From: a virus
Virus record (IMG/VR): IMGVR_UViG_3300022074_000351
Location: 1 to 24,992 of that record
Strand: one strand, 5' to 3'
DNA length: 24,992 nucleotides
The translations under genes were made by a program, and so were the position numbers. Shown in pieces: positions 1-24,992 of this stretch. A model generated the notes under the pieces. That model ran no database searches and was not told the origin of the DNA. It worked only from the letters and a program-made list of their open reading frames with translations. Within the stretch, counting starts at the first letter, position 1; each line of letters begins with the position of its first letter.

Positions 1-3000
1 GCCTAGGTCCGTCCACCCATACCTGTCCTGTCTCATCGCATTGCCCATGGATGGCATGTGAGTGCCACCTAGTGCCTTTAATGAGCCAGCACCGGGGAAT
101 GCATTGATTGCTGCTCCTAGGACCGTTGCTAGCTCCTCACCGTTCTGGCATCGCGTGGCATCCACTACGACGTACTCCATCTTGGCATCCGCTGTTGCCA
201 CAGCTTCACTACCATTGCCCACATAGTCCAGTATGCGACCAGTGAGCACTCCAGATGTCCTGAACGCAGTTGGGTGTATCTGATTGGCACGCTCCCAGTT
301 GCTACTCAACACCCTAGAGGCCGACTTTCCAGCATGAGGTGGGTTGAACGTGATTTGGTTGTCTAACCATGAGCCACCGGGATGGAAGCCACCATCCATG
401 TGCCATACCGTGTCGGCGGCTGTGGCTATTCCGAAGCCTATCATGGGTGTGTGCATCTTAGGGGTGATTCTAGTCAGGTCAGCCGCATTGTAGGGGGTGC
501 CGTAGTTCAACTGCTGGCCGTAGTGCCTGCCATGCTCGGGCCTCTGTGCCTGCTCGCCCTTCATACAGTAACCCGCTGGTGTCTCCCAGTTGACTACGGT
601 GAGCCAGTGAAAGGCTGCGGTGCCTGAGTAGTATGCTTTGCTGGGGGGCCTGTACACATGCCTCTCGTTCTCTATGGAGTTGGGGAATAGTTGCTGGTCG
701 TTCCCCAAACCACTGTGACCACCTTTGAATGGTACTCTAGCCCATGTGCTACTGCTAGTAATGACTCTACCGGGGAACGGCTCCTTGACATTCGCAGTAC
801 CGCTCTCGCTATTGAGCGCAGTTTCATTTGTAAATGGGAATGCCTGTCCCGGACCGAAGACGAGGTAGGTGGTCTTGCTGTCAGTGCCATCCACATGGTC
901 CTCGTAACGGGCTGTCGGGTGAGCGAACCTGAGTACTATGGGGACTGGTTTGGCTTGAATCTCGACACTGCTGTATGTGGTGTCTCCCCTGAGTAAGTCA
1001 GTGCTGAGTATGTTCTGCTTGTTGAACGCGGGAGGTGTGATGCTACCACGATGCTGGTTGCACAGCGCCGCACCGGGGAAGAACGCGAACATGGCGTTGG
1101 TGTCCAGCATGGCGAAGCTGGTGGATATCTCGTTCGCATTCTGCAACCCCGCCACCCCTGTGGGGCCATTAGCGTATGGGTGGGTGTAGAACGAGGAGTA
1201 GTCGTTGGTAGTCCCATCGTTGACGTCAAGCACCACACCGCTGAACCCACCACCGAAGAAGACCGGCACACTGTGGTCCTTGCTGCTCTTGCCACCACGG
1301 AAGTACACCACTGGCTCTGAGAACACGCTACCTAGCGAGCGTAGCCCATCGAACTCCTTCTTGTTGTGCCTTTGTAGAAGCCCCTCCGTATTTCTGCTAG
1401 TGGGAAAATCATCTCCAGCATCCGCTACCTTCCAGCTTAGCTCAATCTGTGGATTGGAGCCCGTCCTGCTTTCGGCTTCTATCGCATACGTCCCTAGCCA
1501 CACTCTAGCTCTCTCACCCACTGGTGATATCTTACCAGCCGATGATGCATCTGCCCCTGAGGGTATCAGGAACGACTGCATCTCGTTGGAGAGTTTGACG
1601 AAAGTGGACCAATTGCTCTGATTGGTAGCACCAAGCCCATCATCGGCGGGAAAGTGGTAATGGGGGTTGTCAATCATAGGCAGTATGTGGTCGCCTGATG
1701 AGCGTGTGAACTGTATGCCCTTGAGCCCCTCCCTCCAGTTGTTGATGTCCACTGGCGTGTTGCTGGAGTCAACTAGGTTGGGTGATGCTGTGTTTGCGTT
1801 AGGCCCTCTAGACGTGGTTGTTATCTCTAGTAAGCTAAAGGGGATGTATCCGCAATCAATGCCTTGGCTGGCGTCTATGTCACTATCGCTTATCGGTCGC
1901 TTGCCATGTGCCGTGCTCGTGCTACTATCGAACTCCCACTCGCCATCAGCCGTTCTCTCGACTAGTCTGACCTCACCGAACTCCAAGTGTGATGCGTGAA
2001 TGCCATAGTCTCGTTTGACTGAGCTACTGTAGGATTGGCTTAGGGGCACTACTGGGCTTCTAGTGTTGTATGCCCTGATTCTTATGGCATCTTCCTTGAC
2101 ACCCCATTGACCGAAGGTCCTGCCATCGGTGGCGTACATCTCCCTGCAATCGAAGATGTGCCCCTCCTCTGAGTTAACCTCGTCCCCAGCATTGATAGCA
2201 GCGGCAGTCACAGCGGCGATGAGTTCGTCAGTCACCAACGTCGTCCAGTTCAATACGGATGAGATAAGTATCTCATTGGGTAGTGCCACTAATCCAGTGC
2301 AACCGAAGAATGTGGTCGAGTCCCTAGACGAGTAAGACACGGTAATACCCACATCGGGAGCAGTCTCATGGTCGGTGATTTGTATGATTCCGTTCTCCCT
2401 AGGGAACCCCAGATAAGCCAGTAAGTCCCCTTTGACGGTCACATTGCTATTCAGGAAGCTAGTGTCATTGAAGGGGGACTTATCGAAGGTTATGGCCAGC
2501 GTTTTGGCACTGGTGTCCTCAACTGCACTGACATGAGCCACAGCGTTTGGAGCATTGACTCCCCTCCACCTAGCTCCCCTCCAAGAGCTAGTGGTCACAG
2601 TGCCACTAGCATCACCGGTAACAAGCCTGCCTGTAGCATCCCCACTGCCGGACATGTGCCCACCTATGGTGAAACCACCTTGACCTGCGCTTCTATCGTC
2701 AAAGAAGATACACACCTCGTCCTCTATAGTAGAGGGGAGTATTGTGTTCTCGTTAGCGAATGCGTCACCCATCTTGCGATATATGTACCTCAGACCGCTC
2801 TCGACACCTAGGTTGTCCTTGAACCTGAAGCCGAAGAGTTGTCCCTTACCCACTGCGTCGGGAGTCGTATCGGTCGTAGGCACATGGCTTGAGTATGCAG
2901 TTTGACCTGAGCTACCGTATCTGTTGTTGAACTTCTCCTCGCCTGTTTTACCGAAGCCCCAGTTACCTGCATCAGGCGCCCAACCGGGCACACCACTGGC

Positions 3001-6000
3001 CACAAGTCCACCGAAGTTGATTCTCGATATGGCTCTCTTACCCACTCTAAGCCCCTTGACTAGGGATGAGGACGAGCCTTTGACATCGAGTGACTCCGTA
3101 TTGACTGTATTGTGCCCCTTGCCACTTATGGAGTCGGAGACTGCTCTCATGACTGCGGAGTCCTCGTAGTCAGCGACGCTCGTGACGTCCTCCCCGCTAT
3201 CCACTGAGGTGACATACTGCTGTAATGTTGTGATTGGGGCGAATGGCCTGCCGTTCTTGTCCAGAGGCATAGGGGCAGGGTGCATGTTCTCACCCTCTCT
3301 CTCGTCTGGGAGGGCCCAGAAGTTTCTCCACCTCCCACCATGTCCCACTAGGAACTGGGGTTGGTAGACGCTCTGTCCCTTGCTGTTGTCAAGCCACACG
3401 CAGAAGTTCCTACCGGATGCACCCGGTACCGTGCTGTGTATCACCACAGTGTAACCGATGTCGCCATTGAGGTCCTGAACCTCCCTGCCTATATGGGCTC
3501 TGATGTATCCCATGTGCGCTCCCCTATCACCGTTGTCGATGTGCCAGAAAGGCGCAGGGTCATGAGCAGAACCGCTTAGCAGTCTAGCGTTCAAGGCGGC
3601 GTGTTGGTTTATCAGCCTGACAATCTCCTCAGCGGCGGCGAGTGTGCTGGTGACGCCATCCCTCTCTGCTACCTCACCGGTGTCTATGGTCAAGCGTCGC
3701 ACGAAGTCCATGTCCTTCCACTGCGGTAGGTGCTGTAGCCTAGTCTCCTCGTGGGAGGAGAGGTCCAAGCTGGTGCTACGAACGCCCTTGAGACAGAGGT
3801 AAGCAGGGATGACCCTAGTGCCATCTGGCGTATCGAAGAACGTGGACGGGTCTCTTAATGTACAACCTGTCGTTCCCTCCCTGTGTTCTATTATCTTCTT
3901 CACAAACGCATCGACAGTGTCGAAAGGCGACCTAGTAAGGAAGTGCTTAGTATCAGCAACCTTGTGAAGGACGACTGAGTCATTGGTTCTAGGAGTCAAG
4001 CTGTATCCGTTCCTGAGACCGGTCACCGCACCACCGAGCGAGTATCCGGCATGCACGTGGTGACCATGTGCCTTCCCGTATATCCTAGAGCCAGCTAGGG
4101 TCCTGCCGTCCGTGGGCAGGTCGACTGTCTGCTCGTCGAACGTCCCGCTGTCCAACAGGTCCTCAGTCTGCCTGTTAGCCAAGTCATGGGCATATGCGCT
4201 CTCTATGAACTTGGACTGCTGTGTGCTTCGTATGTACGGGTTCTGGGACAGGTAGCCGTTAGTGACGTCTATCTGTGTGGTCCATGGACTTGGGCCAGCG
4301 CCGTTGTACACGGCATTGACTTGATGTAGCTCAGTCCTAGCGCTACCACTCTCAACCACCTCCTTGGGCCACCCTATTTGGACGGCTTGCGCACTTGATT
4401 GAACTTGCATGTGTATGTCTTGGAATGCTATGAACTCCCTGTCGTGAGCGACATCGTACAGCAATACACGAGCGTGTCCCTCATCTGACAGGTAGGAGTC
4501 CACGAAAGCCACAGTGGGAGCCTGCGACACAGTGAGACCGAGTGCTAGGTAGTTCTCCTCGATTGTCCTGTTGACGTGCTGTGCGTAGTTCCTCGCAGTC
4601 TCTAGGCAGGTATTCCCGATGAGGAAGTTCTCTATCGGTATGCTATCTCTGGGATTGGTGCTGTCGAGCACCCCCGACCCGCCGTTGAACTCGCTCCATA
4701 CCTCTGCCTCGTTGTAGACACCACGGCTCTTTGCGAACATCCCCTCGACGGCATGTGGGTTGTTGTACGACATGTTGGACCATATCGTGTCACCGTTTCG
4801 CAAGCCACCGGGAGCATACGGGTTGAGCCAAGTGGCGTTGAGTATGGCGTCCTCGTCCTCGTAGTCACCCATCCAGACGCCTAGTTTGACAGTGCCACTG
4901 GGTATCTCCGGTATGGCTGCAGTGAAATCGATGGTTTGCTGGTTGCTGGAGTTTATCTCCGCAACCTCACTGACCACGCCTATCTTCTGTATGACGTCAG
5001 TGGTGGTGTCCTCGAAGTAGTATAGAGTGTCCCCTGTCTTTACATTGATGCCATGCAGGTCATTTACGTTCTTACCATTGGCTGACGTCACTGTTATCCT
5101 GAATGGAGATGATGAGTCCGCAGATTGGTTGGTTATCTCCACATCGGCTATGTTCAAGCTGTTTTTCAACTCACGATAGTACTGAGAGCCATCAAGAACC
5201 TCAGCAGTGACTGCCGTCCCCAGTATGCTCCTGCACTTTCTAGCAAGGGTAATCTCAGCACCCTCAGGCAAACCGTCTGTTTGTAAGTTCTCATCATCGC
5301 TAACAGTTCTTGCTGTTCCAGCACCTATGGTTATGGTAGTCGCTGTGACCGCCGTTACCACCCCTACAATAATACCCCCATCATCGTAAAGATTACTTCC
5401 TACTGAAAATATAGTAGTAGCATCCACTCCTTCAACGTCAAATGCTGAGGTAATACCTCCAGTTGTTTGATTTTTCTTAATCACGCCAGTTGAGTACTTG
5501 TTAGGGGTGAACCCAGTTGACGTGTTATATACTAGAACTATGCTGTTCTTTGGGACGGCTGTGATTGTGGCTCCCGTTAGAGTCTTGATGTGACCGTGAT
5601 ACTGGAATCTGTGGATGGTGCCATTGTCATCATACTGCACTTCGTAACCCAAGTCCCCCACATTGGATGGGGCATCGGCCAACGAGTCATAACCCAAGTC
5701 AGGGAATTTAGCGAAGTCATTGGAGCTCAGTGTTATGATTACAGCCTTGTCCTGATTCGACAGAGGTATCGTCTTAGTAGACAAGGCCTTACCGAACGCA
5801 CGTTTGACTGCCACTTGTGCTGCATGTGGATTGGACTCAGGCCCAGCCTTGAACTCCACTGCACTGACATACTGACGTAGGCCGTAGTCCACATTACCTC
5901 CTTGCGTCTTCACACTAGCGGCATCATGGTAGTACTCGTCCCTATCCTCGAAATCGGATGACGGGGTTATCTCGTCTGATGCCAGCGGTGTATTGCCTTC

Positions 6001-9000
6001 CTCAAAACCAACTCCACCCAAGAACACTGCTTGACCCGCTCTGAGGTCCTCGAAGAAGCCATCACTGTGCCCATGTGGCATGGAGCTGGTGACTAGTTGG
6101 ATATACGTATTGCTGACGGGGTCACCCGTGTACCAGCACCACTCACCATTAGCCAACCAGACCTTTCTGTATCTATGTGCGTTCCTTATTCCCTTGTATT
6201 CGTCTCTATCGGTATGTGACTCGGGAAATATACTGAGGTCGTTGACATGCAATCTGCGATTAGCGGCATCATACTCAGTGATGAATGTAGAATTGACATA
6301 CTCCCTGTTGGATAAGGCGATTGAATAAGCTGATTGGGCCTCCCTGTCTGCTGGTTCCGTGTCCACAAGCCTCCTACCGACTGGACTGGGATTGTAGGTA
6401 TGTGCGGTGTGCGTGGCGTCGACGTGTATCTTGAACGAGTTGTCAGGACCGACGGATGAGTCGAAGAACTGCTTGGAGAAAAAGGGTATCTCAGCTATGG
6501 CTCTAGTGCTGGCATATTGCGTACCTAGCTGGTAGTCGTGTTGCACATCGCTCAGGGCCTGATGCATCCTGTCATTGACCGTGGTGCCGTTCTCCAGATT
6601 GGATTGGTCACCAAAATCAGGCTCACTGTGTATCGTGAAAGTAGCGAATATGTCAACACCCGCACTAGTAACCCCCTCCATCAAGCCACTCGCTCGTAAC
6701 AGTCTCTGTATGTTCGTGTACTCTGTGCCATCAGAGCTAACGTAGTAACCGCTACCTACGGCTTGTAGAGTGAAAACGAACGTGTCTCCCGTCTTACTGG
6801 CATACCTAGCGTTACTTCCATCTGGTAGGTATATCCTACCTAGTTTAGGGAATCCGTACGTTCCCCAAGACGCTAGGTCCTCACTCTCATTGTTGAGCGG
6901 TTTCACATATAGAGTACCAACAGTATCTCCAACACTACTGGCACCTGTAGGTACATTCAACCTGTACGCAGAGACGGAGTATGACCTACGTGTGGAGTAC
7001 GACTCATGGGCCAGCATGCTCTTCTGGAACACGGGTCTGGTGTCGATGGCACCTTGTCCCGGACCACCTAGGGTCACTGTTATTACAGGCGCATTGGGCT
7101 CTATCTCCTTGACAACGTGGGAGTCAGGGCTACCCCTACCGGAGAAGTTCATCGCTCTGGAGACTATGGAGTCGCCTATGCCTATGCAGTTGATTGCCTC
7201 TACTGCTCCCTCGCCGTCAACGCTCTCCTCTATGCTCCTGACCTTCACCCTGCTCATCATATACAGCAGGGCCGCTTGGTTGGGCGTGCTGCTGATGTTC
7301 ACCTTGGAGAGCAGTCCGCTCCTCTTCCTGTCACAGGGTTGCACTATGATGCGCATGTCGTTGTCAGAACCACTGGTCAACAGGTAGTTGTCCACGATGT
7401 CGAACACCTCGTGTATGGGTGTGGCCGAGGACACTGTGCCAGTATCGAACTGGCCAGCGGATGGGCTACCGACAGCCAAGTCCGGGTCCACCCTCCTGTA
7501 GCTACCCTTGTCAGTGATGGCCTTGTCCTTGTTGACCTTCTCCAAGTACAGCTTGTGAAACGCTGAGTCATGGGTGCCAGTCGTGCTGGTCGAGTCGAGT
7601 ATCACGCCGGGGGTCTGGTTCTGTATAGAGTCGGAGTTGTTCCTCGGTGTGTAGTTGGCTGGTGTGAGTGACTCGTCTATCTCGTCGTCAGCGGAGTGTC
7701 CTTCCGAGGTATCGCCCACTAGACTGTGGTCATACAGTATGGCGTCATTGGTGTTGATGTCCTGTGAGCTGACTTCTATGTAGCCTCCGGGGGCATGTAG
7801 GGTCATTCCTGAGGATATGGCGTGGATGATTGAGTCGTATATGTACTCAGCCCCACTCACTAGCGTATCGGAGGACGGGACTGTCTTCTCGACCATCAAC
7901 AGCGGTTGCACCGTTCCACTCATGCTCTCCCCAGTGAGGTCTATCGCATTGTAGTGTATCTCCACGAAGGGAGCTAGTGTGGGAGTCAGGTCAGACAGCC
8001 TAGGAACGTGTAGGATAGCCACCCTGCTCTCCTTCGATGGCTTGACGTGGTACTTCCGTATGTCACTGCTGATATGCGTCTGAGCGTCATCAGGGTCATG
8101 TTTCTGGAAGGGCGGTATGGGCCCCTTGAGTGCGAATGGGGTGTAGTCGAAGTTAGGCCCGCCAATGGCAATGAGCTTCCTCTTGCCAGCAGGTGGGCTG
8201 GTGGTGCCGTTGTAGGAGTTGTACGCGGCAGTCACAGTGCTACTGCTGACGACGTCCTTGATTTCCACGGCTCCGAACTCACGATAGAGGTCAAGCACGC
8301 TGTTGACTGACACTACCTTGTCTATGCCGCTCTGCATCTCATCGTAGATGATGTCCACCACATCAGCGGAACCATCCGCTCTCTGGTCAATCAGCTCAGC
8401 GGAGGCCTTGGGCAGTATCCTGAGGTAGGAGTGCCCCTCGACATGGTTCTCTATGTGTCTGCCGCTGTGCCCTATCTGGTAGGCGGCATCCACTGTCGTG
8501 GGCCATGTGGCGGCGAAGGGGTTGTTGGTGTCGGAGGTGGTTGTTGACATTGCCGACGAGTACACGAAGCCATGGTTGCCGAACTCGCTCTCGTCTATCA
8601 CCATCTGCCCGGTCCTGTCTACAATCTGTGATGTGTAGTGAGGTGGCTGGTATGGGTTGCCCGTCGCTGTATCCAGCAACAGGTCGGAGCTGACTACGAC
8701 GAAGTGGTTGTCCACCCCAGCGCTCCTCGTATGCAGGGCAGGGAGCAGGCCGTTGGTGGATGAGGCGAAGTCTAGGTGTATGCTGGACACAAGCAGGTTG
8801 CCGGTATCGACGTTGATGCTATGGAGCCTCATTCTCTCTGGCGGTTTGCCATTGGGGGCCTTCGTGTCCGGGTCTATGCCATTGGGATTGATGAGTATGT
8901 TATACGGCGTGTGCGATACGGCATGGGTGACTAGCGTGCCAGACTGGTAGTCCAGCACCTTGTAGTCCCCGCTGGAGTACTTGTGCACACCAGTAGAGTC

Positions 9001-9930
9001 CTTGGAGAAGACGTAGTTGCTCGTGACGCTCGATAGCCCAGTGAGCCTCTTGGCTAGTGTGGTTGCATCTGCGCTCGACATGCTGATTTGCGATATCGTG
9101 ACGCTGACGCCATCTATGGTGGTGCCGTTGTTGGCTATGGAGGAGAACGTGTAGACGCCCTCTATCGGTGATATCGGCTCCTCGAACCTGTATAGCAGCA
9201 GCGTGTCTGCATCAGGCAGTGGGCAGTTGTTGTTTATCATGGCGCTCTTGAAGTTACCATTGATATGTATGGCCTCCATAGTCCCACGGAACTTGCCCCC
9301 CTTGCCACCGATGTAGGTCTGCTTGGATGACTCAGCTAGGGTGAGGTTCTTGTTCTTGGTGGACTCTGCCGCGACCAGCTCCCCGTTCACGTACAGCTCG
9401 ACCGAGGATGCCCTGACAGCCCCAACCACGTGTATCAGTGGCCTGTGGTTCTTGTTGAGGTCAGTCGCATCGTCCCTGCCACTGACGAAGCGGTTGTATG
9501 AGTCCTGTACCCCTTGGTACTCGATGTGCGGGTAGACCATCCCCTCGTACCTGTTGGATGAGAAGTTAGCAGTGGTGAGGGTCACCTGAGTCTCCCCGTT
9601 CTCGCCCGCTAGGTTCACGGTGAACGTGGCTGGTCCGGGCGTGTCGATGTTGCCTAGAGTTAGCTCGAACTGCCCCTCCTTCTCTATTATCGTACCACCG
9701 CAGTCAGGCATGACCCAAGCCTCTACCGTCATGTAGCCACTGAAGGAGCCTGATGTAGCACCACTTCCCCTGTAGGACAGTGGCGAATCCTCGGATATGA
9801 TTGGCCTGACATCCGGGGTGCCTTGGGTGGTCTTGGTTCCCAATGAGGAGAATAAGCCCTCGGGGACGACTATGCTGTCGGTTATGCCGTTGAAGAACAT
9901 CGCATGGTTCTTACGGCTGATGACTGTCAT
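1..9930 (-). CDS. Giant tail-tip/tail-fibre protein, partial (at least 3310 aa)
   Basis: The frame starts at an ATG (9928-9930) and reads through to base 1 without a stop: exactly 3310 codons, C-terminus outside the window. A GGAGTGA Shine-Dalgarno lies just upstream, and the start is 13 bases after the stop of the preceding gene. Residues about 60-250 look like a LamG/concanavalin-like jelly roll, with VEAWVMP near residue 68, ELYVNGELVA near 175 and TYIGGK near 192. The rest is long, beta-rich and rich in Gly, Ser, Thr, Asn, His and aromatic residues, with no enzymatic motif I can name. It follows tape-measure-like and Dit-position genes, which is where siphoviruses encode tail-associated/host-specificity proteins. 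It probably forms the tail tip or fibres and binds the host surface. Residues about 1457-1533 are encoded by a more A+T-rich stretch. The structural role is fairly secure; host binding is inferred. Confidence 0.8.
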   Translation of the reverse strand, partial: MTVISRKNHAMFFNGITDSIVVPEGLFSSLGTKTTQGTPDVRPIISEDSPLSYRGSGATSGSFSGYMTVEAWVMPDCGGTIIEKEGQFELTLGNIDTPGPATFTVNLAGENGETQVTLTTANFSSNRYEGMVYPHIEYQGVQDSYNRFVSGRDDATDLNKNHRPLIHVVGAVRASSVELYVNGELVAAESTKNKNLTLAESSKQTYIGGKGGKFRGTMEAIHINGNFKSAMINNNCPLPDADTLLLYRFEEPISPIEGVYTFSSIANNGTTIDGVSVTISQISMSSADATTLAKRLTGLSSVTSNYVFSKDSTGVHKYSSGDYKVLDYQSGTLVTHAVSHTPYNILINPNGIDPDTKAPNGKPPERMRLHSINVDTGNLLVSSIHLDFASSTNGLLPALHTRSAGVDNHFVVVSSDLLLDTATGNPYQPPHYTSQIVDRTGQMVIDESEFGNHGFVYSSAMSTTTSDTNNPFAATWPTTVDAAYQIGHSGRHIENHVEGHSYLRILPKASAELIDQRADGSADVVDIIYDEMQSGIDKVVSVNSVLDLYREFGAVEIKDVVSSSTVTAAYNSYNGTTSPPAGKRKLIAIGGPNFDYTPFALKGPIPPFQKHDPDDAQTHISSDIRKYHVKPSKESRVAILHVPRLSDLTPTLAPFVEIHYNAIDLTGESMSGTVQPLLMVEKTVPSSDTLVSGAEYIYDSIIHAISSGMTLHAPGGYIEVSSQDINTNDAILYDHSLVGDTSEGHSADDEIDESLTPANYTPRNNSDSIQNQTPGVILDSTSTTGTHDSAFHKLYLEKVNKDKAITDKGSYRRVDPDLAVGSPSAGQFDTGTVSSATPIHEVFDIVDNYLLTSGSDNDMRIIVQPCDRKRSGLLSKVNISSTPNQAALLYMMSRVKVRSIEESVDGEGAVEAINCIGIGDSIVSRAMNFSGRGSPDSHVVKEIEPNAPVITVTLGGPGQGAIDTRPVFQKSMLAHESYSTRRSYSVSAYRLNVPTGASSVGDTVGTLYVKPLNNESEDLASWGTYGFPKLGRIYLPDGSNARYASKTGDTFVFTLQAVGSGYYVSSDGTEYTNIQRLLRASGLMEGVTSAGVDIFATFTIHSEPDFGDQSNLENGTTVNDRMHQALSDVQHDYQLGTQYASTRAIAEIPFFSKQFFDSSVGPDNSFKIHVDATHTAHTYNPSPVGRRLVDTEPADREAQSAYSIALSNREYVNSTFITEYDAANRRLHVNDLSIFPESHTDRDEYKGIRNAHRYRKVWLANGEWCWYTGDPVSNTYIQLVTSSMPHGHSDGFFEDLRAGQAVFLGGVGFEEGNTPLASDEITPSSDFEDRDEYYHDAASVKTQGGNVDYGLRQYVSAVEFKAGPESNPHAAQVAVKRAFGKALSTKTIPLSNQDKAVIITLSSNDFAKFPDLGYDSLADAPSNVGDLGYEVQYDDNGTIHRFQYHGHIKTLTGATITAVPKNSIVLVYNTSTGFTPNKYSTGVIKKNQTTGGITSAFDVEGVDATTIFSVGSNLYDDGGIIVGVVTAVTATTITIGAGTARTVSDDENLQTDGLPEGAEITLARKCRSILGTAVTAEVLDGSQYYRELKNSLNIADVEITNQSADSSSPFRITVTSANGKNVNDLHGINVKTGDTLYYFEDTTTDVIQKIGVVSEVAEINSSNQQTIDFTAAIPEIPSGTVKLGVWMGDYEDEDAILNATWLNPYAPGGLRNGDTIWSNMSYNNPHAVEGMFAKSRGVYNEAEVWSEFNGGSGVLDSTNPRDSIPIENFLIGNTCLETARNYAQHVNRTIEENYLALGLTVSQAPTVAFVDSYLSDEGHARVLLYDVAHDREFIAFQDIHMQVQSSAQAVQIGWPKEVVESGSARTELHQVNAVYNGAGPSPWTTQIDVTNGYLSQNPYIRSTQQSKFIESAYAHDLANRQTEDLLDSGTFDEQTVDLPTDGRTLAGSRIYGKAHGHHVHAGYSLGGAVTGLRNGYSLTPRTNDSVVLHKVADTKHFLTRSPFDTVDAFVKKIIEHREGTTGCTLRDPSTFFDTPDGTRVIPAYLCLKGVRSTSLDLSSHEETRLQHLPQWKDMDFVRRLTIDTGEVAERDGVTSTLAAAEEIVRLINQHAALNARLLSGSAHDPAPFWHIDNGDRGAHMGYIRAHIGREVQDLNGDIGYTVVIHSTVPGASGRNFCVWLDNSKGQSVYQPQFLVGHGGRWRNFWALPDEREGENMHPAPMPLDKNGRPFAPITTLQQYVTSVDSGEDVTSVADYEDSAVMRAVSDSISGKGHNTVNTESLDVKGSSSSLVKGLRVGKRAISRINFGGLVASGVPGWAPDAGNWGFGKTGEEKFNNRYGSSGQTAYSSHVPTTDTTPDAVGKGQLFGFRFKDNLGVESGLRYIYRKMGDAFANENTILPSTIEDEVCIFFDDRSAGQGGFTIGGHMSGSGDATGRLVTGDASGTVTTSSWRGARWRGVNAPNAVAHVSAVEDTSAKTLAITFDKSPFNDTSFLNSNVTVKGDLLAYLGFPRENGIIQITDHETAPDVGITVSYSSRDSTTFFGCTGLVALPNEILISSVLNWTTLVTDELIAAVTAAAINAGDEVNSEEGHIFDCREMYATDGRTFGQWGVKEDAIRIRAYNTRSPVVPLSQSYSSSVKRDYGIHASHLEFGEVRLVERTADGEWEFDSSTSTAHGKRPISDSDIDASQGIDCGYIPFSLLEITTTSRGPNANTASPNLVDSSNTPVDINNWREGLKGIQFTRSSGDHILPMIDNPHYHFPADDGLGATNQSNWSTFVKLSNEMQSFLIPSGADASSAGKISPVGERARVWLGTYAIEAESRTGSNPQIELSWKVADAGDDFPTSRNTEGLLQRHNKKEFDGLRSLGSVFSEPVVYFRGGKSSKDHSVPVFFGGGFSGVVLDVNDGTTNDYSSFYTHPYANGPTGVAGLQNANEISTSFAMLDTNAMFAFFPGAALCNQHRGSITPPAFNKQNILSTDLLRGDTTYSSVEIQAKPVPIVLRFAHPTARYEDHVDGTDSKTTYLVFGPGQAFPFTNETALNSESGTANVKEPFPGRVITSSSTWARVPFKGGHSGLGNDQQLFPNSIENERHVYRPPSKAYYSGTAAFHWLTVVNWETPAGYCMKGEQAQRPEHGRHYGQQLNYGTPYNAADLTRITPKMHTPMIGFGIATAADTVWHMDGGFHPGGSWLDNQITFNPPHAGKSASRVLSSNWERANQIHPTAFRTSGVLTGRILDYVGNGSEAVATADAKMEYVVVDATRCQNGEELATVLGAAINAFPGAGSLKALGGTHMPSMGNAMRQDRYGWTDLG
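9181..9753 (-). other. LamG/concanavalin-like domain of the giant tail protein
   Basis: This segment encodes about residues 60-250 of the giant protein. It has the usual LamG_3 landmarks in order: an EAWV strand, a G-x-F-x-L-x-L strand, an H-x-x-G-A-V segment, an E-L-Y-V-N-G-E turn, a Y-I-G-G strand and a final F-R-G-x-M-E-x-I-x-I strand, closing with LLLYRFEEP. Such domains in viral tail proteins usually bind carbohydrate or glycoprotein. Identification is by motif reading only. Confidence 0.65.
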
Positions 9931-9943
9931 TTCGCTCACTCCA

Positions 9944-12172: not shown

Positions 12173-12517
12173 AAAACCCCCTTGCATCGCCTCCGCCAGC
12201 TCATCTGGCTTAGGTAGTAGTGCTGCTATCTGCTGGCCCACGTAGGCGTTGAGGCTCATCATCTCCTCGACAGACAGGTCTGGGTTGGTTCTGACGACCC
12301 ACTCTTTGAAGGCGTAACGCCAGTAACCGTCTAGGTTGATGGATATGTCATCCCCTTGCATGGAAAACATGCTCTGTGCTGCTTTCTGCACGTCAAAGAA
12401 CGTAAGGTCCCTCACCCAGACTTCCATCTTCATGTCTGGGTTATCGCGGTCTGCACTGATTTCGTGCCTTTGTTCACTCTTCCTCGTAATTAGGTTGTGT
12501 TTGTCTACTATCGTCAT
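12155..12517 (-). CDS. Tail assembly chaperone (G-like), 120 aa
   Basis: The ATG at 12517 lies inside the end of the preceding SAP-domain gene (44-base overlap) and the TGA is at 12155-12157. The protein is small and mostly helical, with a central segment (EVWVRDLTFFDVQKAAQSMF, then YWRYAFKEWVVRTNPDLSVE) like siphovirus tail assembly chaperones, which often carry a W-R-x-A-x-x-x-W-x-x-x-T-x-P pattern. A GGGTTTT heptamer lies in phase five codons before the stop, and the next frame follows at -1. It should act with its frameshifted fusion to keep the tape-measure protein assembly-competent. Family assignment rests on size, position and the frameshift signal. Confidence 0.75.
   Translation of the reverse strand: MTIVDKHNLITRKSEQRHEISADRDNPDMKMEVWVRDLTFFDVQKAAQSMFSMQGDDISINLDGYWRYAFKEWVVRTNPDLSVEEMMSLNAYVGQQIAALLPKPDELAEAMQGGFTKANS
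12173..12179 (-). promoter_or_regulatory. Slippery heptamer GGGTTTT for programmed -1 frameshifting
   Basis: In transcript sense the site reads G GGT TTT in the zero frame of the 120-aa gene (Gly114, Phe115). It fits X XXY YYZ with X=G and Y=T. After a one-base slip the codons continue TAC GAA GGC GAA CAG TTG, which is the frame of the downstream 92-residue ORF. The zero-frame TGA lies 15 bases beyond the site. Both phase and location match tail chaperone frameshift sites. Confidence 0.75.
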
Positions 12518-13211
12518 GTTGTGTCACTTCCTCGGTTGCAGCCTCTTGCGAGGGGGCATCCGGCTCATCTTCAGCAGCCTCTTGCGAGGGGGCTTCCGTT
12601 TCGCCTTTGGTCGGTTGCTCGACTATACCTGCGTCATCGCGTCTCAGCCTTAACACTACCTCAGATTTGGTACCTCTAATCGTGATTCCCCTAAGTCTGC
12701 ACTGGTCTTGTAACTCACGCACGGTGAAGGAGTTGTAGTCAACCTCCCCACCAAACGGGTTCTCGTCTATGACCTCCTCAACCTCATCAGGAACTTCCTC
12801 ATCAGGAGCTTCCTCCTCCTCAGCTTGAGCTTCCTCCTCCTCTTCCTGAGCTTCCTCGATGCTGTCTTCGTGAGTCTCCTCCTCTCCTTCTTCGATGGGC
12901 TCAGCATCTTCCTCGAATATCTCCTCGATTACCTCCTCTATGACTTCTCCTATGTCGTCGGCTAGACCCTCTATGACGCTCATAGCAGCCTCGACCCAGC
13001 TAGGCTTCTCCTCGATGACATCCTCAATCTGCTTGTCCATGAGCCTCTCGAGCACCATGTCATCGACCTCGCTTCTGGTTCTGGATGCCAAGAGGCTTGA
13101 GGCCCATTCGGTGTCGGACCTCAACTCGACTCTCTGCAAGAGCCAGTGCACGTAATTCTCATGTGAGTTTCGTCGGTAGTAGCTGACTCTACTGACGGCT
13201 ATTGGTAGCAT
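12474..13211 (-). CDS. Acidic SAP-domain protein, 245 aa
   Basis: The ATG at 13211 follows a GAGTGA site and starts nine bases after the tail-tube gene's stop. Residues 1-90 are helical and mixed-charge. Residues about 93-150 are an extreme Glu/Asp-rich tract. Residues about 159-192 (FTVRELQDQCRLRGITIRGT, then KSEVVLRLRRDD) match a SAP motif, a short helix-extended-helix unit that often binds DNA. A duplicated APSQEAA peptide follows in an acidic tail. The gene sits between the tail tube and the chaperone genes, where virion morphogenesis proteins are expected, so the role may be structural or chaperone-like rather than DNA regulation. I do not recognise the full-length family. Confidence 0.7.
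   Translation of the reverse strand: MLPIAVSRVSYYRRNSHENYVHWLLQRVELRSDTEWASSLLASRTRSEVDDMVLERLMDKQIEDVIEEKPSWVEAAMSVIEGLADDIGEVIEEVIEEIFEEDAEPIEEGEEETHEDSIEEAQEEEEEAQAEEEEAPDEEVPDEVEEVIDENPFGGEVDYNSFTVRELQDQCRLRGITIRGTKSEVVLRLRRDDAGIVEQPTKGETEAPSQEAAEDEPDAPSQEAATEEVTQHDDSRQTQPNYEEE
12538..12593 (-). repeat. Two 20-base direct repeats, 36-base period
   Basis: The plus-strand sequence gcagcctcttgcgagggggc occurs exactly at 12538-12557 and 12574-12593. The 36-base period equals twelve codons, so the repeat encodes APSQEAA twice near the C-terminus of the SAP-domain protein without breaking frame. It looks like a recent short tandem duplication. Confidence 0.9.
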
Positions 13212-19835: not shown

Positions 19836-21008
19836 TCACTTAAGGTCACGGATGCTCCCCTGTGCTCCAAAGAAAGTAGTCCAAATCTCGCCCATGGTTC
19901 GATAGAGACCCTCTTGGCCCAGTCTGTTGATTGCGAACGGGTCACCGGTTTCGATGCCGCTCTCGAAGTACTGCGTTGGTATTGCAGTGCTGAAGTATAG
20001 GTAGTCTGTGTCTAGGTAGTACATCCTGCTGATTCCGTCAGATAGCATGTCCTTGGTTGGGATGATTGGTACACCGTTGTAGGTTGCGACAATGAATCCT
20101 GCCTCAATACCGGGTACACCCTTTACACCGTTGTAGGTTGGGGTAACTCTCTTCTCTTCCATGAACCTCTGCTGGGACTGTAGCAATTGCTGAATCCTCA
20201 TCAGAGTGTCGTATCCAGTTAGGATGACCTTGGGGTTTCCACCACGAATCCAGAGCTTCTGGAACATCTCGTCCATTACGTCCAGTGTTAGGACTCTCTG
20301 GCTGGAGGCCTGAGCATCTGCCGCACAGGACATCTCTGCTTCGGACCACGAGTTAGCGGACCTGTCAATCGAGTAGATGTCTAGGTCTGTTGCCGCTGTT
20401 ACGTGGGTGTTGCTGCTGGAGGTCTTCAGACCGGTTAGTCCAGCGCTTCCACCGTCGTTTGCAGTGACTCTGTCGAGGGACTCGAAGTTGTTTGCCGCTG
20501 GTGTGTCTACGTCTGTTAGAAGCATCTTGTTGACCATCTCAGCGTGGTGCTTGCCCATCTCTTCCTTCATGACTGAGCGAATATCTCCCAATCCGTCGTC
20601 CTTGTCAGCTAGGAAGATAGCAGTCTCGGACATATCGAACGTGTGTGCGATTGTCTTTGGCTTTGCTGCTACGTGCTGGAAGGTAGGCCTTACAGTCTCA
20701 GGTAGTGTTGCGTTCTCAGCAACTCCACCGTGTAGGACACCATCGTTGTTTGGTCTTGCTGTGATAACTCTCCAGCCGGACCTGTCCCATGGTCTCTTTG
20801 GTAGTATTGAGAAGGCGTTGAACTCTTGGTTGAGTTGCGACCAGACCTTGCGACCATAAATCGCTTGGTATGTTCCACCTGTGGTTGACAGCATTGGGCT
20901 GTCAGCCTTGAGTAACTCGCTACCAGTGTAGGAGTAACCCATTGCGTTCCCGGCGCCATAGTAGTAGCGCTCCATGTCTGTTATTGTTCGTACATAATTT
21001 CTTGCCAT
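19836..21008 (-). CDS. Major capsid protein, HK97 fold, 390 aa
   Basis: The start is taken as the ATG at 21008 (MARNYVRTITD), which has an AAAGGAGA site ten bases upstream; a GTG three codons earlier would sit directly on that site. The gene follows protease/scaffold and precedes small decoration-type genes. The N-terminal segment (about residues 1-60) is followed by SILPKRPWDRSGWRVITARP and RPTFQHVAAKPKTIAHTFDM, then a spine-helix-like stretch (DIRSVMKEEMGKHHAEMVNK) and DVMDEMFQKLWIRGGNPKVI-LTGYDTLMRIQ, the pattern of HK97-type capsid P and A domains. The C-terminal strands (YNGVPIIPTKDM, RMYYLDTDYLYF) are also typical. Length is normal for the fold. No delta-domain is evident, because scaffold is fused to the protease instead. 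Confidence 0.85.
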   Translation of the reverse strand: MARNYVRTITDMERYYYGAGNAMGYSYTGSELLKADSPMLSTTGGTYQAIYGRKVWSQLNQEFNAFSILPKRPWDRSGWRVITARPNNDGVLHGGVAENATLPETVRPTFQHVAAKPKTIAHTFDMSETAIFLADKDDGLGDIRSVMKEEMGKHHAEMVNKMLLTDVDTPAANNFESLDRVTANDGGSAGLTGLKTSSSNTHVTAATDLDIYSIDRSANSWSEAEMSCAADAQASSQRVLTLDVMDEMFQKLWIRGGNPKVILTGYDTLMRIQQLLQSQQRFMEEKRVTPTYNGVKGVPGIEAGFIVATYNGVPIIPTKDMLSDGISRMYYLDTDYLYFSTAIPTQYFESGIETGDPFAINRLGQEGLYRTMGEIWTTFFGAQGSIRDLK

Positions 21009-21021
21009 ATTTTTCACTCTC

Positions 21022-21045: not shown

Positions 21046-22497
21046 TCACTCGAACGTCTTTGACGCCAAGTGGTGTACTTCCTCCCATGACATTTGTGCT
21101 AGGTCTTCGGTCGAAGGAACGACCACTGATGGTGCGCTCTCTGACTTGCGAATTTCTGCGCCTTCTACGGCGGGAGATGCTATTTCATCGAGTCTTGCTC
21201 CTAGAGCTTCGATGGACTTCTGGATATCAGCTAGTGGGCTGCGAGCATCGAAAGCTGCTGCCTCTGCCTTTGCGATTTCGTTTCTCCTCTCTGAGTTGAA
21301 CCTCTCAGCGAAGTGCTTCTCTAGGTCAGACTTGAACTCCTGCTCCATTGCTGCAGCCTTGTAGACCTCGTAAGCCGACTCGACCTCTGCATCAGAGACG
21401 GTAGTTGCGGAGATAAAGTCAGATTTCTCGACTTTTCCACCTGCACCGGTTGTAGCGGCGATTGCGCCAGTTGAAGGTGACCCTCCCTCTTGCACTCTGC
21501 CCTTTACCTGTCCTGTGTGCTGTGTGTACCCAGCGTCCCACTCTTCAGGTGTGGAACCTAGGTTGGCTTTCTCAAGGTCATCAAAGTGGTTTCTTGCGGC
21601 GTCTGTATCTACTCCACCGCTCTTCAAGGTGTCTTCCATCCAGTTTAGGTAGCTTGAGGTGATTACATCTGAGTATTCCTCAGACTTCTCGACCTCGCCC
21701 TTGGATGCTTCTTCCTCAGCCTTGTCTTTCATGTCCTTGTCATCCTTGGCTCCGTCCTTTTTCTTGTCCATGTGCTCTTTGAGTCCTGCTGGCATGCCTT
21801 TCTCCATGTCATCAAGTCTTCCCTCAAGGCGCGATAGAACATCGCCAAGTTGCTTCATCATTTCGTTGTCATTTTCTGTTTCTGTCATTTCTGTCACTTC
21901 CGTGTCTTCTTTTAGTATGCTAAATGTTGCTTCGGGATTTATTCCTTTTTCGCAAATCGTTATTTCATGAAGCTCCAGTTTGCTAATTTCTTGGTAATCG
22001 CCTCTCTTCTGGTCTGATTTTCTGACCCTCTTAAACGCTTGACCACCGATACTGAATCCTCTGAGAACGCCCTTTCTGATTTCTGCTGAAACCTCTTTTG
22101 CCTTCTCGATGTCGTTTCTGAGTTGTACTACTACAAACATCCCGACATCATCGACTTCGCTTTTCCACAACCTCCCTTCGTTATCTGTATAATTTGGTAT
22201 TACATCTCCAACTTGTATATTACTGTGAGCCAATTGAACATTTCTATAAGACGGATTCTGCATAAATTTGTTGAATGCGTCCTTCAATGCCTCCTTCGTT
22301 ATTACGTCACCCTGCTTGTCAACTACTTCTACGCTCGCATATCCAGCCACAATGAGGTCGTTTCCGCCTTTGAGGACGACCAGAGGGTCGTCGTCGTGGT
22401 TGAAGAGCTGTTGACTTCCGAGCACACTATCAGCCACAACGTACTGCTTTACTACTTCAATGCTTTGGGAATCGAAATGTATATCTCTAAGAGTCAT
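21046..22497 (-). CDS. Prohead protease (XkdF/S78-type) fused to scaffold, 483 aa
   Basis: The ATG at 22497 overlaps the end of the preceding gene by 11 bases. Residues about 45-195 match the prohead protease fold: VAGYASVEVVDKQGDVITKE, then the QLAHSN histidine (His91), VVVQLRNDIEKAKEVSAEIR, the GFSIGG serine (Ser149), and LELHEITICEKGINPEATFS, which closes the fold and offers an acidic third residue (Glu178). The order His-Ser-acid fits the S78/XkdF group. Residues about 200-290 are very charged and Met/Lys/Glu-rich, and about 375-450 form coiled coil (LEKHFAERFNSERRNEIAKA). These resemble an internal scaffold that is digested during maturation. The last 35 residues may be the capsid-interacting end. 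The capsid gene follows directly. Confidence 0.82.
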   Translation of the reverse strand: MTLRDIHFDSQSIEVVKQYVVADSVLGSQQLFNHDDDPLVVLKGGNDLIVAGYASVEVVDKQGDVITKEALKDAFNKFMQNPSYRNVQLAHSNIQVGDVIPNYTDNEGRLWKSEVDDVGMFVVVQLRNDIEKAKEVSAEIRKGVLRGFSIGGQAFKRVRKSDQKRGDYQEISKLELHEITICEKGINPEATFSILKEDTEVTEMTETENDNEMMKQLGDVLSRLEGRLDDMEKGMPAGLKEHMDKKKDGAKDDKDMKDKAEEEASKGEVEKSEEYSDVITSSYLNWMEDTLKSGGVDTDAARNHFDDLEKANLGSTPEEWDAGYTQHTGQVKGRVQEGGSPSTGAIAATTGAGGKVEKSDFISATTVSDAEVESAYEVYKAAAMEQEFKSDLEKHFAERFNSERRNEIAKAEAAAFDARSPLADIQKSIEALGARLDEIASPAVEGAEIRKSESAPSVVVPSTEDLAQMSWEEVHHLASKTFE

Positions 22498-24992
22498 TTT
22501 CGATAGACTGCTCTGATGTTTGTTTCAGTTTCTTCTTCCTTCCGGGATAGTCATCTGGTTTCTCTGGGTCCGTCCCCGGACGTTCTTTCATATCATAGTC
22601 AGGTAGGCTCTGCTCGCCAATTAGCGTAGTTGGGCCTCTTGGGCTCTCAGTTCCATCCCCTACATCTATGCCCAATCCCCTGCCACCGCTCATGGGATAG
22701 TGGCCTGCGAACCCCTTGTCGAGCTTGTCAAGGACCTTCTCTATCATTTTCAGCGCTTTCATTGTGTCCTTGGGCTTGAGCAGTATGTTCTGGTCCTTCT
22801 TGGGTTTGAGGATTCCTGCGCTCTGATTCTCTATCCTACGGGCATGCTCATCAGTCATGCCCTCGTCCTCTTCCAAGTCTGGTATCTCGAGCTCCTCCTT
22901 CTTGAGGTAGGCGAATCCCCTCTGCCAGAAGGGCTCTAGGCTCTTGGCTAGCCTGACTGAGTAGTCTGACGAGGAGACTCCGCCTATCGCCGCCATCGGG
23001 TTGGTTGGCCCCTCTTCGGTGATTTCGTACTTCACTATGTCCTCTGGTAGCCTCAGTATGAAGTGCTTGTCCTCTATCTCCATCGTGAATGGTATGTGGT
23101 AGAGTATGTCCTCCTTGGCCAGCATGACCCACTTGGGGTGCTTCTCCTCTCCCTTCATGTAAGTGGACTTGGCGTCCCTTATCAGTAGCATGTCGTTCTC
23201 CTTGCCTAGTGACTCCACTGCCTGTTTCAAGCCGACTTCGTCCGTGACCCTGATGTCCGATGGGCTTGGTATGTGCACTGGGTGATAGCTGTCGAACTGC
23301 CCCCTGAGTATCTTGACCCTCTCACGGGTGGTCAGGTCGGTGACGTCGTCCTTGTCGTACATCATTATGTCATTGATGAACAGCTCGCCATTGACCATAG
23401 CTGCATCCACCACGAAGTTCTTCTTGCACGATGAGCGTAGCGCCGACCTCAAATCGTCACTGGTGGACTGGTTCTCGCCCTTCTCGTTCTCTATGTAGAT
23501 GTGATTGCCCTTCTTGCTGACCTTGCACCTCGTTCCCTCCCTGTGGACTGAGACTACCCACTCACCAGTGAAGCCCCTGAGCTGTGACATGTCATCTAGC
23601 TCGAATATCCTGTGCATGGGCTCTATGAGGGGAATCTCCTTGGGTAGGTCGGCCTTATTCATTATGTTGTGGTCCTTCTGGTGAGGGAACTGACCAGTGC
23701 TATCTGGGATGGACATTGCGGACCCGCTCTGCACTGGCATGGAGTTCTGCATCATTGACTGGATGTGCTCGGTAGTGTGAGTGTCGCTTAGGACCGACTG
23801 TAGCATAGACACGGGTATTGTGTTGTAGTCGACTGGTTGGGGGTTCATCCCAACCACCGTCTCAGAGCCGTCGTGCTCGAGGCCGAACTCGGCTGTCATC
23901 TCATGACCCGTGTCTAGGGCGCCGTCGTTAATGACGTCTAGGGGCACTATGCCGCTTTGGCTGTTGATTGAGCGTATTGGGCTATCGTCATACCCGCCTA
24001 TCAGGCTTGCGGAAGATGTCGGCATCTCGGAGGTAATCTCCTCGGGAGCTATAGCTGGGTTGAAGGACATGATGTGGCTAGCTATGTCCTTGATGGGGAG
24101 GTGCCTCTTTCGGGTTTGCGAGCCCTTACCGGGAGGGTTCGGGTGAAGCAAGGGGCCTCCGTCTCTGGATACGATGCCCTTGCCGTCCCCCTTCGTCTTG
24201 GCTTGTGGCGGTCGCTGAAGCTGTAGGCCATACGCATCTAGCTTAGCGGGTGTGCCCACCGCCTTTGCACCAAACCAAGACATCGCGCTGTGTATGGGTA
24301 TCCTCTGTGCGAGGGTTTTGAGTTTGTTTTTCCTTTCTGGGTTGTTACTTCCCGTCGGCCAGTCTCTCTTGTCGTTGGCCAGAGCTATGTCCAAGGCGTC
24401 ATGGACGCTGTCATGTCCCCTGACGTGAGTGAACATGTCCTTGTCCTCATCGTTCCAGTCGTGGCCTATCCCAGCTAGCTTGCCAAAGGACATGGCAATG
24501 ACCTTTCCTCTGATGTCTTCGCTGTTCAACCAGTTAGATACGTATTCCTTGTGGGCCTCGTCGTTAGGCAGGCCCAATATCTCCAAGGCCTCGTCCACAC
24601 CAGTGTCAGGGCCTATCGTGTGGTTGTCCATTATAGTGGGTTGTTGCAGGTAGTTGGATATGAGGGCATGCATGTCTGAGGTGGTTTCCTGCTCCACACC
24701 CCTCCTGATGTCATGCCCGTAGGAGGTCAGGGAGTGACCATCGTCTAGGTGTATTGAGCGCATTGCCCCTGATAGCAGGGCATACGAGTTAGCTAGCGCT
24801 TTGGGGTTTTTTGGGTGGAATGCTAGTGGTATCTCTCTTTCCACTTTCTCCCTGAGCTGTCTGGCTCTTTGAACTACAGCTCTGTTATCGGATGATATCA
24901 GCTTCTGTAGGCTCTCCCTCGCACCATGGCCCGAATATCCGCTGACAGCTCTATCTTCCTGCTCCCTCTGTATCTCCATCAGGGATTTTATG
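22487..24992 (-). CDS. Large head-assembly protein with degenerate ligase-like domain, 5' partial
   Basis: From an ATG at 24979 the frame gives 830 residues, but it is also open upstream to the window edge and that ATG has no Shine-Dalgarno site, so the true start may lie outside. Residues about 1-110 are helical and charged; 110-450 are mixed and low complexity in places. Residues about 465-622 align by eye with the nucleotidyltransferase core of ATP-dependent DNA ligases: WVVSVHREGTR (motif I position), FVVDAAMVNGELFINDIMMY (motif III region), TDLTTRERVKIL, and MLLIRDAKSTYMKGEEKHPK with WVMLAK (motifs IV-V). The motif I lysine is His479 and the DGE glutamate is Ala527, so catalysis is unlikely, and no OB-fold is evident. 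The C-terminus is Pro/Gly/Lys-rich. It sits before the protease, next to where a portal gene is expected. Confidence 0.6.
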   Translation of the reverse strand, partial: IKSLMEIQREQEDRAVSGYSGHGARESLQKLISSDNRAVVQRARQLREKVEREIPLAFHPKNPKALANSYALLSGAMRSIHLDDGHSLTSYGHDIRRGVEQETTSDMHALISNYLQQPTIMDNHTIGPDTGVDEALEILGLPNDEAHKEYVSNWLNSEDIRGKVIAMSFGKLAGIGHDWNDEDKDMFTHVRGHDSVHDALDIALANDKRDWPTGSNNPERKNKLKTLAQRIPIHSAMSWFGAKAVGTPAKLDAYGLQLQRPPQAKTKGDGKGIVSRDGGPLLHPNPPGKGSQTRKRHLPIKDIASHIMSFNPAIAPEEITSEMPTSSASLIGGYDDSPIRSINSQSGIVPLDVINDGALDTGHEMTAEFGLEHDGSETVVGMNPQPVDYNTIPVSMLQSVLSDTHTTEHIQSMMQNSMPVQSGSAMSIPDSTGQFPHQKDHNIMNKADLPKEIPLIEPMHRIFELDDMSQLRGFTGEWVVSVHREGTRCKVSKKGNHIYIENEKGENQSTSDDLRSALRSSCKKNFVVDAAMVNGELFINDIMMYDKDDVTDLTTRERVKILRGQFDSYHPVHIPSPSDIRVTDEVGLKQAVESLGKENDMLLIRDAKSTYMKGEEKHPKWVMLAKEDILYHIPFTMEIEDKHFILRLPEDIVKYEITEEGPTNPMAAIGGVSSSDYSVRLAKSLEPFWQRGFAYLKKEELEIPDLEEDEGMTDEHARRIENQSAGILKPKKDQNILLKPKDTMKALKMIEKVLDKLDKGFAGHYPMSGGRGLGIDVGDGTESPRGPTTLIGEQSLPDYDMKERPGTDPEKPDDYPGRKKKLKQTSEQSIENDS
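23114..23587 (-). other. Degenerate ATP-dependent DNA ligase-like domain
   Basis: This segment encodes about residues 465-622 of the large head protein (numbering from the ATG at 24979). The order and spacing of ligase motifs I, III, IIIa, IV and V is kept, while key residues differ: H-R-E-G-T-R in place of K-x-D-G-x-R, V-D-A-A in place of L-D-G-E, and L-I-R in place of V-I-K. Conservation of the scaffold with loss of the nucleotidyl-lysine points to a binding or structural role. Confidence 0.5.

What the first reader, a model, noticed from the sequence alone, without database searches (positions are those of the whole stretch)
23114..23587. Apparently inactive DNA-ligase fold built into a head-assembly protein
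The protein encoded just before the prohead protease contains a stretch that follows the motif order of ATP-dependent DNA ligases, but with the nucleotidyl lysine replaced by His479 and the motif III glutamate by Ala527. Ligases belong to replication modules; a dead copy inside the structural cassette suggests reuse, for example to hold DNA ends or nicked DNA at the portal, or as a virion protein. I know of no characterised precedent in this gene position.
Basis: partly seen in the sequence, partly recalled or inferred. Interest (0 to 1): 0.75.

Follow-up and report, generated by a model that had tools for sequence, protein, structure and literature searches.

The report
Dead DNA-ligase domain in virus head protein
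In tailed viruses of the marine-archaeal 'magrovirus' type, a very large protein encoded among the head-building genes carries a DNA-ligase domain whose catalytic residues are lost in every relative examined, yet the domain is among the best-preserved parts of the protein, so it has probably been kept for a binding or scaffolding job rather than for joining DNA.

Summary
Residues 445-683 of the ORF at 22487-24979 (-) form a domain homologous to ATP-dependent DNA ligases: Pfam DNA_ligase_A_M matches it just above cut-off and matches 26/26 relatives; the AlphaFold model's best PDB matches are archaeal ligases (E 6.5e-10). This is not a local mutation: in 134 distinct homologues (down to 28% identity) motif I is never Lys and motif III never Glu. 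Purifying selection is strong (dN/dS 0.013-0.068). The domain and a short C-terminal tail are the best-conserved parts of a ~1,700-2,150-aa protein (the window holds its last 830 aa) encoded between portal and prohead protease in every untruncated magrovirus-type locus. A sister lineage keeps the ligase OB fold; the window's lineage lacks it. Only 1 of 20 records over 80 kb has a separate intact PF01068 ligase, so published 'DNA ligase' calls in magroviruses may partly be this domain (inference). Function is inferred: a non-catalytic binding or scaffold module of a head-associated protein. DNA-end holding at the portal is untested; the acidic domain and missing OB fold do not favour it. Closest precedent: poxvirus A20. 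New variant of a known kind.

The parts
22487..24979 (-). C-terminal 830 aa of a giant head-cassette protein (full length about 1,700-2,150 aa in relatives; the 5' part lies outside the window)
   Evidence: ORF calls; full-length relatives such as L005:5678-11152
22931..23647 (-). Catalytically dead ATP-dependent DNA-ligase-like nucleotidyltransferase domain, residues 445-683
   Evidence: Pfam PF01068 above cut-off, 26/26 relatives; AlphaFold plus Foldseek to DNA ligases
23528..23545 (-). Degenerate motif I H479-R-E-G-T-R484 (ligase K-x-D-G-x-R); nucleophilic Lys replaced, Gly and Arg kept
   Evidence: 134 distinct homologues: never Lys at this position; Arg 123/128
23396..23407 (-). Degenerate motif III D525-A-A527-M (ligase D-G-E); Glu lost, Asp kept
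   Evidence: Column is I/V/T/M/F/A, never Glu; Asp 124/129
23354..23380 (-). Motif IIIa FINDIMMYD, retained
   Evidence: D/E at 129/129
23114..23188 (-). Motif IV to V segment LLIRDAKSTYMKGEEKHPKWVMLAK; catalytic motif V lysine lost, segment almost invariant in the family
   Evidence: D, Y, G, W invariant and H 131/132 in the distinct rows, which include loci chosen by the capsid protein alone
22570..22690 (-). Strongly conserved C-terminal tail (GRGLGIDVG...ESPRGPT...PDYDMKERPGTD)
   Evidence: One of the highest-conservation stretches in the 53-sequence full-length alignment
21046..22497 (-). Prohead serine protease (Peptidase_S78), immediately downstream and overlapping
   Evidence: Pfam PF04586 4.6e-10; PHROG head maturation protease
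19836..21017 (-). HK97/SU10-type major capsid protein
   Evidence: PHROG 24667 3.6e-60; relatives in HVTV-1/HCTV

Best explanation
A DNA-ligase catalytic core (nucleotidyltransferase plus OB fold) was captured into a giant protein of the head-gene cassette in an ancestor of magrovirus-like tailed viruses, lost its adenylation chemistry, and has been kept as a non-catalytic binding module. Shown: homology and fold, family-wide loss of catalytic residues, strong purifying selection, fixed position between portal and protease, an OB fold in one lineage and its absence in the window's lineage. Inferred: that capture preceded loss, that the protein is part of the head or is ejected with DNA, and that the hyperconserved motif IV-V hairpin together with the C-terminal tail forms an interface with a head component (protease, capsid protein, portal or another part of the giant protein), with DNA contact possible mainly in the OB-bearing lineage. 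Of the binding targets I put a protein partner slightly ahead of DNA.
For: Ligase homology by Pfam in 26/26 relatives and by profile to PDB ligases; Foldseek to archaeal ligases. No Lys in motif I and no Glu in motif III in 134 distinct rows. dN/dS 0.013-0.068 in the domain in all seven close pairs compared, below the N-terminal part in the five pairs where that could be computed. Domain and tail are the most conserved parts of the protein. Of the 80 loci found by capsid protein alone, 73 carry the domain and the 7 others are cut off at the contig end. Gene order TerL, HNH-like, portal, three small genes, giant protein, protease, capsid protein. OB fold present in the sister lineage. Precedent for a dead viral ligase serving as a structural part: A20 of poxviruses (PMC11142717). 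Acidic domain, pI 5.3, favours protein over DNA contact.
Against: No experimental data on any member; no direct evidence that the protein is in the virion. No partner identified. A hyperconserved pocket-lining hairpin could also serve ligand binding or a new chemistry. The order of events (loss of OB in the window lineage rather than gain in the other) rests on parsimony, not on a rooted tree.
Confidence: 0.6

Rival explanations
1. The domain is a DNA-end or nick-holding module inside the head or at the portal.
For: Ligases bind nicked DNA; the sister lineage keeps NTase plus OB, the minimal DNA-gripping pair; gene lies next to the portal cluster; conserved Arg/Lys in motifs I and IV-V.
Against: The window lineage has no OB fold; no ligase N-terminal DNA-binding domain was found by Pfam; the domain is acidic, pI 5.3.
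Confidence: 0.2
2. The giant protein is an ejected effector packaged in the head, and the dead ligase domain acts in the infected cell, for example by occupying nicks or partnering with host repair or replication proteins.
For: In haloarchaeal HVTV-1 a large gene upstream of the prohead protease (a few small genes lie between) encodes zeta-toxin kinase plus ADP-ribosyltransferase domains, typical of ejected effectors (general knowledge).
Against: No sequence similarity between HVTV-1 ORFs of that region and any segment of the giant protein, so the shared slot does not prove a shared role; deep conservation of one domain is less typical of fast-evolving effectors.
Confidence: 0.11
3. The domain still binds a nucleotide or carries out a different reaction with shifted catalytic residues.
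For: Motif I Arg, motif III Asp, motif IIIa and the basic residue of motif IV are kept; the motif IV-V hairpin is almost invariant.
Against: Motif I Lys, motif III Glu and the first motif V Lys are lost in every distinct homologue, and the residue replacing the nucleophile is variable (W, Y, M, H, L, F, Q), unlike a new catalytic residue.
Confidence: 0.07
4. Chance resemblance or a decayed relic without function.
For: Sequence scores against Pfam are close to the cut-off.
Against: Fold match E 6.5e-10 and 1.5e-12; dN/dS below 0.07; present in all untruncated magrovirus-type loci.
Confidence: 0.02

Closest known systems
ATP-dependent DNA ligases (Pfam DNA_ligase_A_M; archaeal Thermococcus/Pyrococcus and human LigI/III type)
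   Same: Nucleotidyltransferase fold, motif order, motif IIIa, Gly/Arg of motif I, basic residue of motif IV; OB fold in the sister lineage
   Different: Motif I Lys, motif III Glu, first motif V Lys lost in all homologues; fused in a giant head-cassette protein; no OB in the window lineage
Middle domain of poxvirus processivity factor A20
   Same: Viral, catalytically dead DNA-ligase NTase (plus OB) kept as a structural part of a complex (PMC11142717); poxvirus processivity factors also appear among the fold matches
   Different: A20 is a replication-holoenzyme subunit of eukaryotic viruses; here the domain is in the head-gene cassette of archaeal-type tailed viruses
Snurportin-1 m3G-cap-binding domain
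   Same: Non-catalytic nucleotidyltransferase-type fold used for binding (general knowledge); weak profile matches in 9 of 26 relatives and to PDB chains
   Different: Binds an RNA cap in nuclear import; only weak sequence similarity
HVTV-1 gp115 (zeta toxin plus ADP-ribosyltransferase)
   Same: Large multidomain protein encoded upstream of the prohead protease in a related capsid lineage
   Different: Different domains; no detectable sequence similarity; other genes lie between it and the protease
Stand-alone ligase of one magrovirus-like record (L070)
   Same: Same Pfam family, same virus record as a dead copy
   Different: 379 aa, stand-alone, with intact KFDGVR, FDGE and EGAMVR motifs, about 80 kb away

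Membership tests
ATP-dependent DNA ligase (active enzyme) | Nucleophilic Lys in motif I (K-x-D-G) | tested here: not met
   His479 in the window; never Lys in 134 distinct homologues
ATP-dependent DNA ligase (active enzyme) | Glu in motif III | tested here: not met
   Ala527; I/V/T/M/F/A in homologues, never Glu
ATP-dependent DNA ligase (active enzyme) | Glu-Gly at the start of motif IV | tested here: not met
   Gly absent, Glu in only 19 of 123 rows, in a gappy stretch
ATP-dependent DNA ligase (active enzyme) | Lys-x-Lys of motif V | tested here: not met
   First Lys position is L/M/I/V in all rows; second is Lys in 5 of 132
Ligase/capping-enzyme nucleotidyltransferase fold superfamily | Sequence profile match | tested here: met
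   PF01068 26.5 bits over cut-off 26.2; 26/26 relatives match
Ligase/capping-enzyme nucleotidyltransferase fold superfamily | Nucleotidyltransferase fold | tested here: met
   AlphaFold model with Foldseek E 6.5e-10 to an archaeal ligase
Ligase catalytic core | C-terminal OB fold | tested here: not met
   Absent in the window lineage; present in the sister lineage, TM 0.63-0.64 to archaeal ligases
Ligase catalytic core | Nick or DNA-end binding | not testable with these tools
   Needs purified protein
Virion or ejected head protein | Gene in the head cassette between portal and protease | tested here: met
   Gene order in seven relatives, annotated with PHROGs/Pfam in one; 73 of 73 untruncated loci have the domain
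Virion or ejected head protein | Protein present in the virion | not testable with these tools
   No cultured virus or proteome of this group is available here

The most novel reading that the evidence does not exclude
A family-wide, essential head-morphogenesis or packaging component of an abundant marine archaeal virus group is built on a repurposed DNA ligase core: the first pseudo-ligase that works in virion assembly or genome organisation instead of replication. As a corollary, part of the 'DNA ligase' annotation of magrovirus genomes is wrong and most of these viruses would rely on the host ligase.
Probability: 0.4. Interest if true: 0.75.

Novelty: new variant of a known kind. Interest (0 to 1): 0.6.

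Why it matters
Pseudoenzymes derived from ligases are rare, and none that I could find is part of a virus head cassette. The domain is fixed across a widespread marine virus group and is among the best-conserved parts of a giant protein of unknown function, so it points to the working surface of that protein. It also bears on genome annotation: the literature says almost all magroviruses encode a DNA ligase (PMC10160649), but of 20 records over 80 kb only one has a separate intact PF01068 ligase, so part of that statement may rest on this inactive domain.

Tried and rejected
Single-sequence PDB search with the whole ORF gave only chance hits (alcohol dehydrogenase, E near 1); profile and fold searches were needed. 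Searches of named phage genomes with the whole protein and with the sister-lineage domain, and two scans of 84,980 prokaryote genomes, found no relative. The type-record accessions ON649702 and OR863078 are not held, so the published ligase annotation could not be checked at source; the original magrovirus paper is not held. HVTV-1 and vir519 ORFs share no detectable segment with the giant protein. Local mutation was rejected, as was relic without function. Pattern ascertainment was considered: one relative search was driven by DAKSTYM and HPKW motifs, so invariance there was re-checked with loci found by the capsid protein included. NAD-dependent and RNA ligases were sought and not found in large records. 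A Pfam scan of the OB stretch gave only weak hints; the fold search settled it. One script failed for a missing consensus match and one for a file format; both were redone.

Full report
What is there. The ORF at 22487-24979 on the minus strand (830 aa from its first ATG) runs off the window, so the window holds only the C-terminal part of the protein. Full-length relatives are about 1,700-2,150 aa.

Is it a ligase fold? Yes. Pfam DNA_ligase_A_M matches the domain above its curated cut-off (26.5 against 26.2 bits) and matches every one of 26 aligned relatives. A profile of the family picks out DNA ligases among PDB sequences, and a profile of a sister lineage does so at 4.4e-7. AlphaFold2 predicts the fold with pLDDT 76.9 and pTM 0.68. 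Foldseek places it with archaeal and human ATP-dependent ligases, best E 6.5e-10, with 124 hits below 1e-3. In the viral library, DNA ligases dominate the named hits, with mRNA capping enzymes and poxvirus processivity factors further down.

Is it dead everywhere? Yes, by sequence. In 134 distinct homologous rows (pairwise identity down to 28%, median 43%) the motif I position is W, Y, M, H, L, F or Q and never Lys; motif III is never Glu; the first motif V lysine is always replaced by a hydrophobic residue. Kept are the motif I Gly and Arg, the motif III Asp, motif IIIa, the basic residue of motif IV, and the segment RDxxSTYMxGExxHPKW. Loss of activity is therefore inferred from the missing catalytic residues, not measured.

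Is it under selection? In seven close pairs dN/dS in the domain is 0.013-0.068, below the N-terminal part in the five pairs where that could be computed. In a full-length alignment of 53 diverse relatives, the domain and the last ~50 residues are the most conserved parts of the protein.

Where is it? Of 80 loci collected with the capsid protein alone, without reference to this domain, 73 carry it and the 7 others are cut off at the contig end. In a wider capsid-protein set, 55 loci carry it; 11 loci with more than 4.5 kb upstream do not, and those have a weak or no match to the magrovirus-type protease, so they lie outside the clade. Gene order in the relatives is terminase large subunit, an HNH/LAGLIDADG-like gene, portal, three small genes, the giant protein, prohead protease, capsid protein. 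All ten long records tested encode a B-family DNA polymerase. This, the relation of the capsid protein to haloarchaeal HVTV-1/HCTV, and the module layout described for magroviruses (PMC12999244, PMC10768690, PMC10160649) identify the group as magrovirus-like; the host of this particular virus was not determined.

Evolution. In a sister lineage (alignment A3) the domain is followed by a second domain. The model of both (pLDDT 80.9) matches archaeal ligases over nucleotidyltransferase plus OB fold with TM 0.63-0.64. The window's lineage lacks the OB fold. The simplest reading is capture of a two-domain ligase core, loss of catalysis before the family diversified, and later loss of the OB fold in one branch. 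I have no rooted tree for this.

Other ligases. PF01068 was searched in 31 virus records, 20 of them over 80 kb. All contain the dead domain; one contains a separate 379-aa ligase with intact motifs. No NAD-dependent ligase was found in 10 and no RNA ligase in 14 large records. The statement that almost all magroviruses encode DNA ligase (PMC10160649) may thus partly reflect this domain. That is inference: I could not see their gene calls, their set includes groups not sampled here, and the records may be incomplete.

How it works. The most likely explanation is a non-catalytic binding module of a head-associated giant protein. Its near-invariant motif IV-V hairpin and C-terminal tail suggest a fixed partner. 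The acidic domain (pI 5.3) and the missing OB fold make a protein partner somewhat more likely than DNA in the window lineage; DNA contact remains open, especially where the OB fold is kept. The best precedent is the inactive ligase in poxvirus A20, a structural part of the polymerase holoenzyme (PMC11142717). The related haloarchaeal virus HVTV-1 has a large kinase/ADP-ribosyltransferase protein upstream of its protease without detectable similarity, so an ejected-effector role is possible but less supported.

Verdict. New variant of a known kind (pseudo-ligase in a new setting), interest 0.6.

Noticed in passing
window 22570-22690 (-): C-terminal tail of the giant protein (GRGLGIDVG...ESPRGPT...PDYDM..RP) is as conserved as the ligase domain and may be a docking peptide.
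   Followed up: partly
window 12474-13211 (-): A 245-aa protein in the tail region carries a SAP domain (Pfam 5.9e-8), normally a DNA-binding domain, among structural genes.
   Followed up: no
window 1-9939 (-): Open-ended 3,313-aa ORF at the end of the structural cassette with a concanavalin A-like lectin (Laminin_G_3) match; likely a tail fibre or adhesin.
   Followed up: partly
L068:1539-5480 (HVTV-1 gp115): A large protein upstream of the prohead protease with a zeta-toxin kinase domain and an ADP-ribosyltransferase domain, possibly an ejected effector.
   Followed up: partly
L015:1539-2705 and equivalents: An HNH/LAGLIDADG-like gene sits between terminase and portal.
   Followed up: no
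G003, locus L070: The one large record with a true stand-alone ligase (intact motifs) also carries the dead copy.
   Followed up: partly
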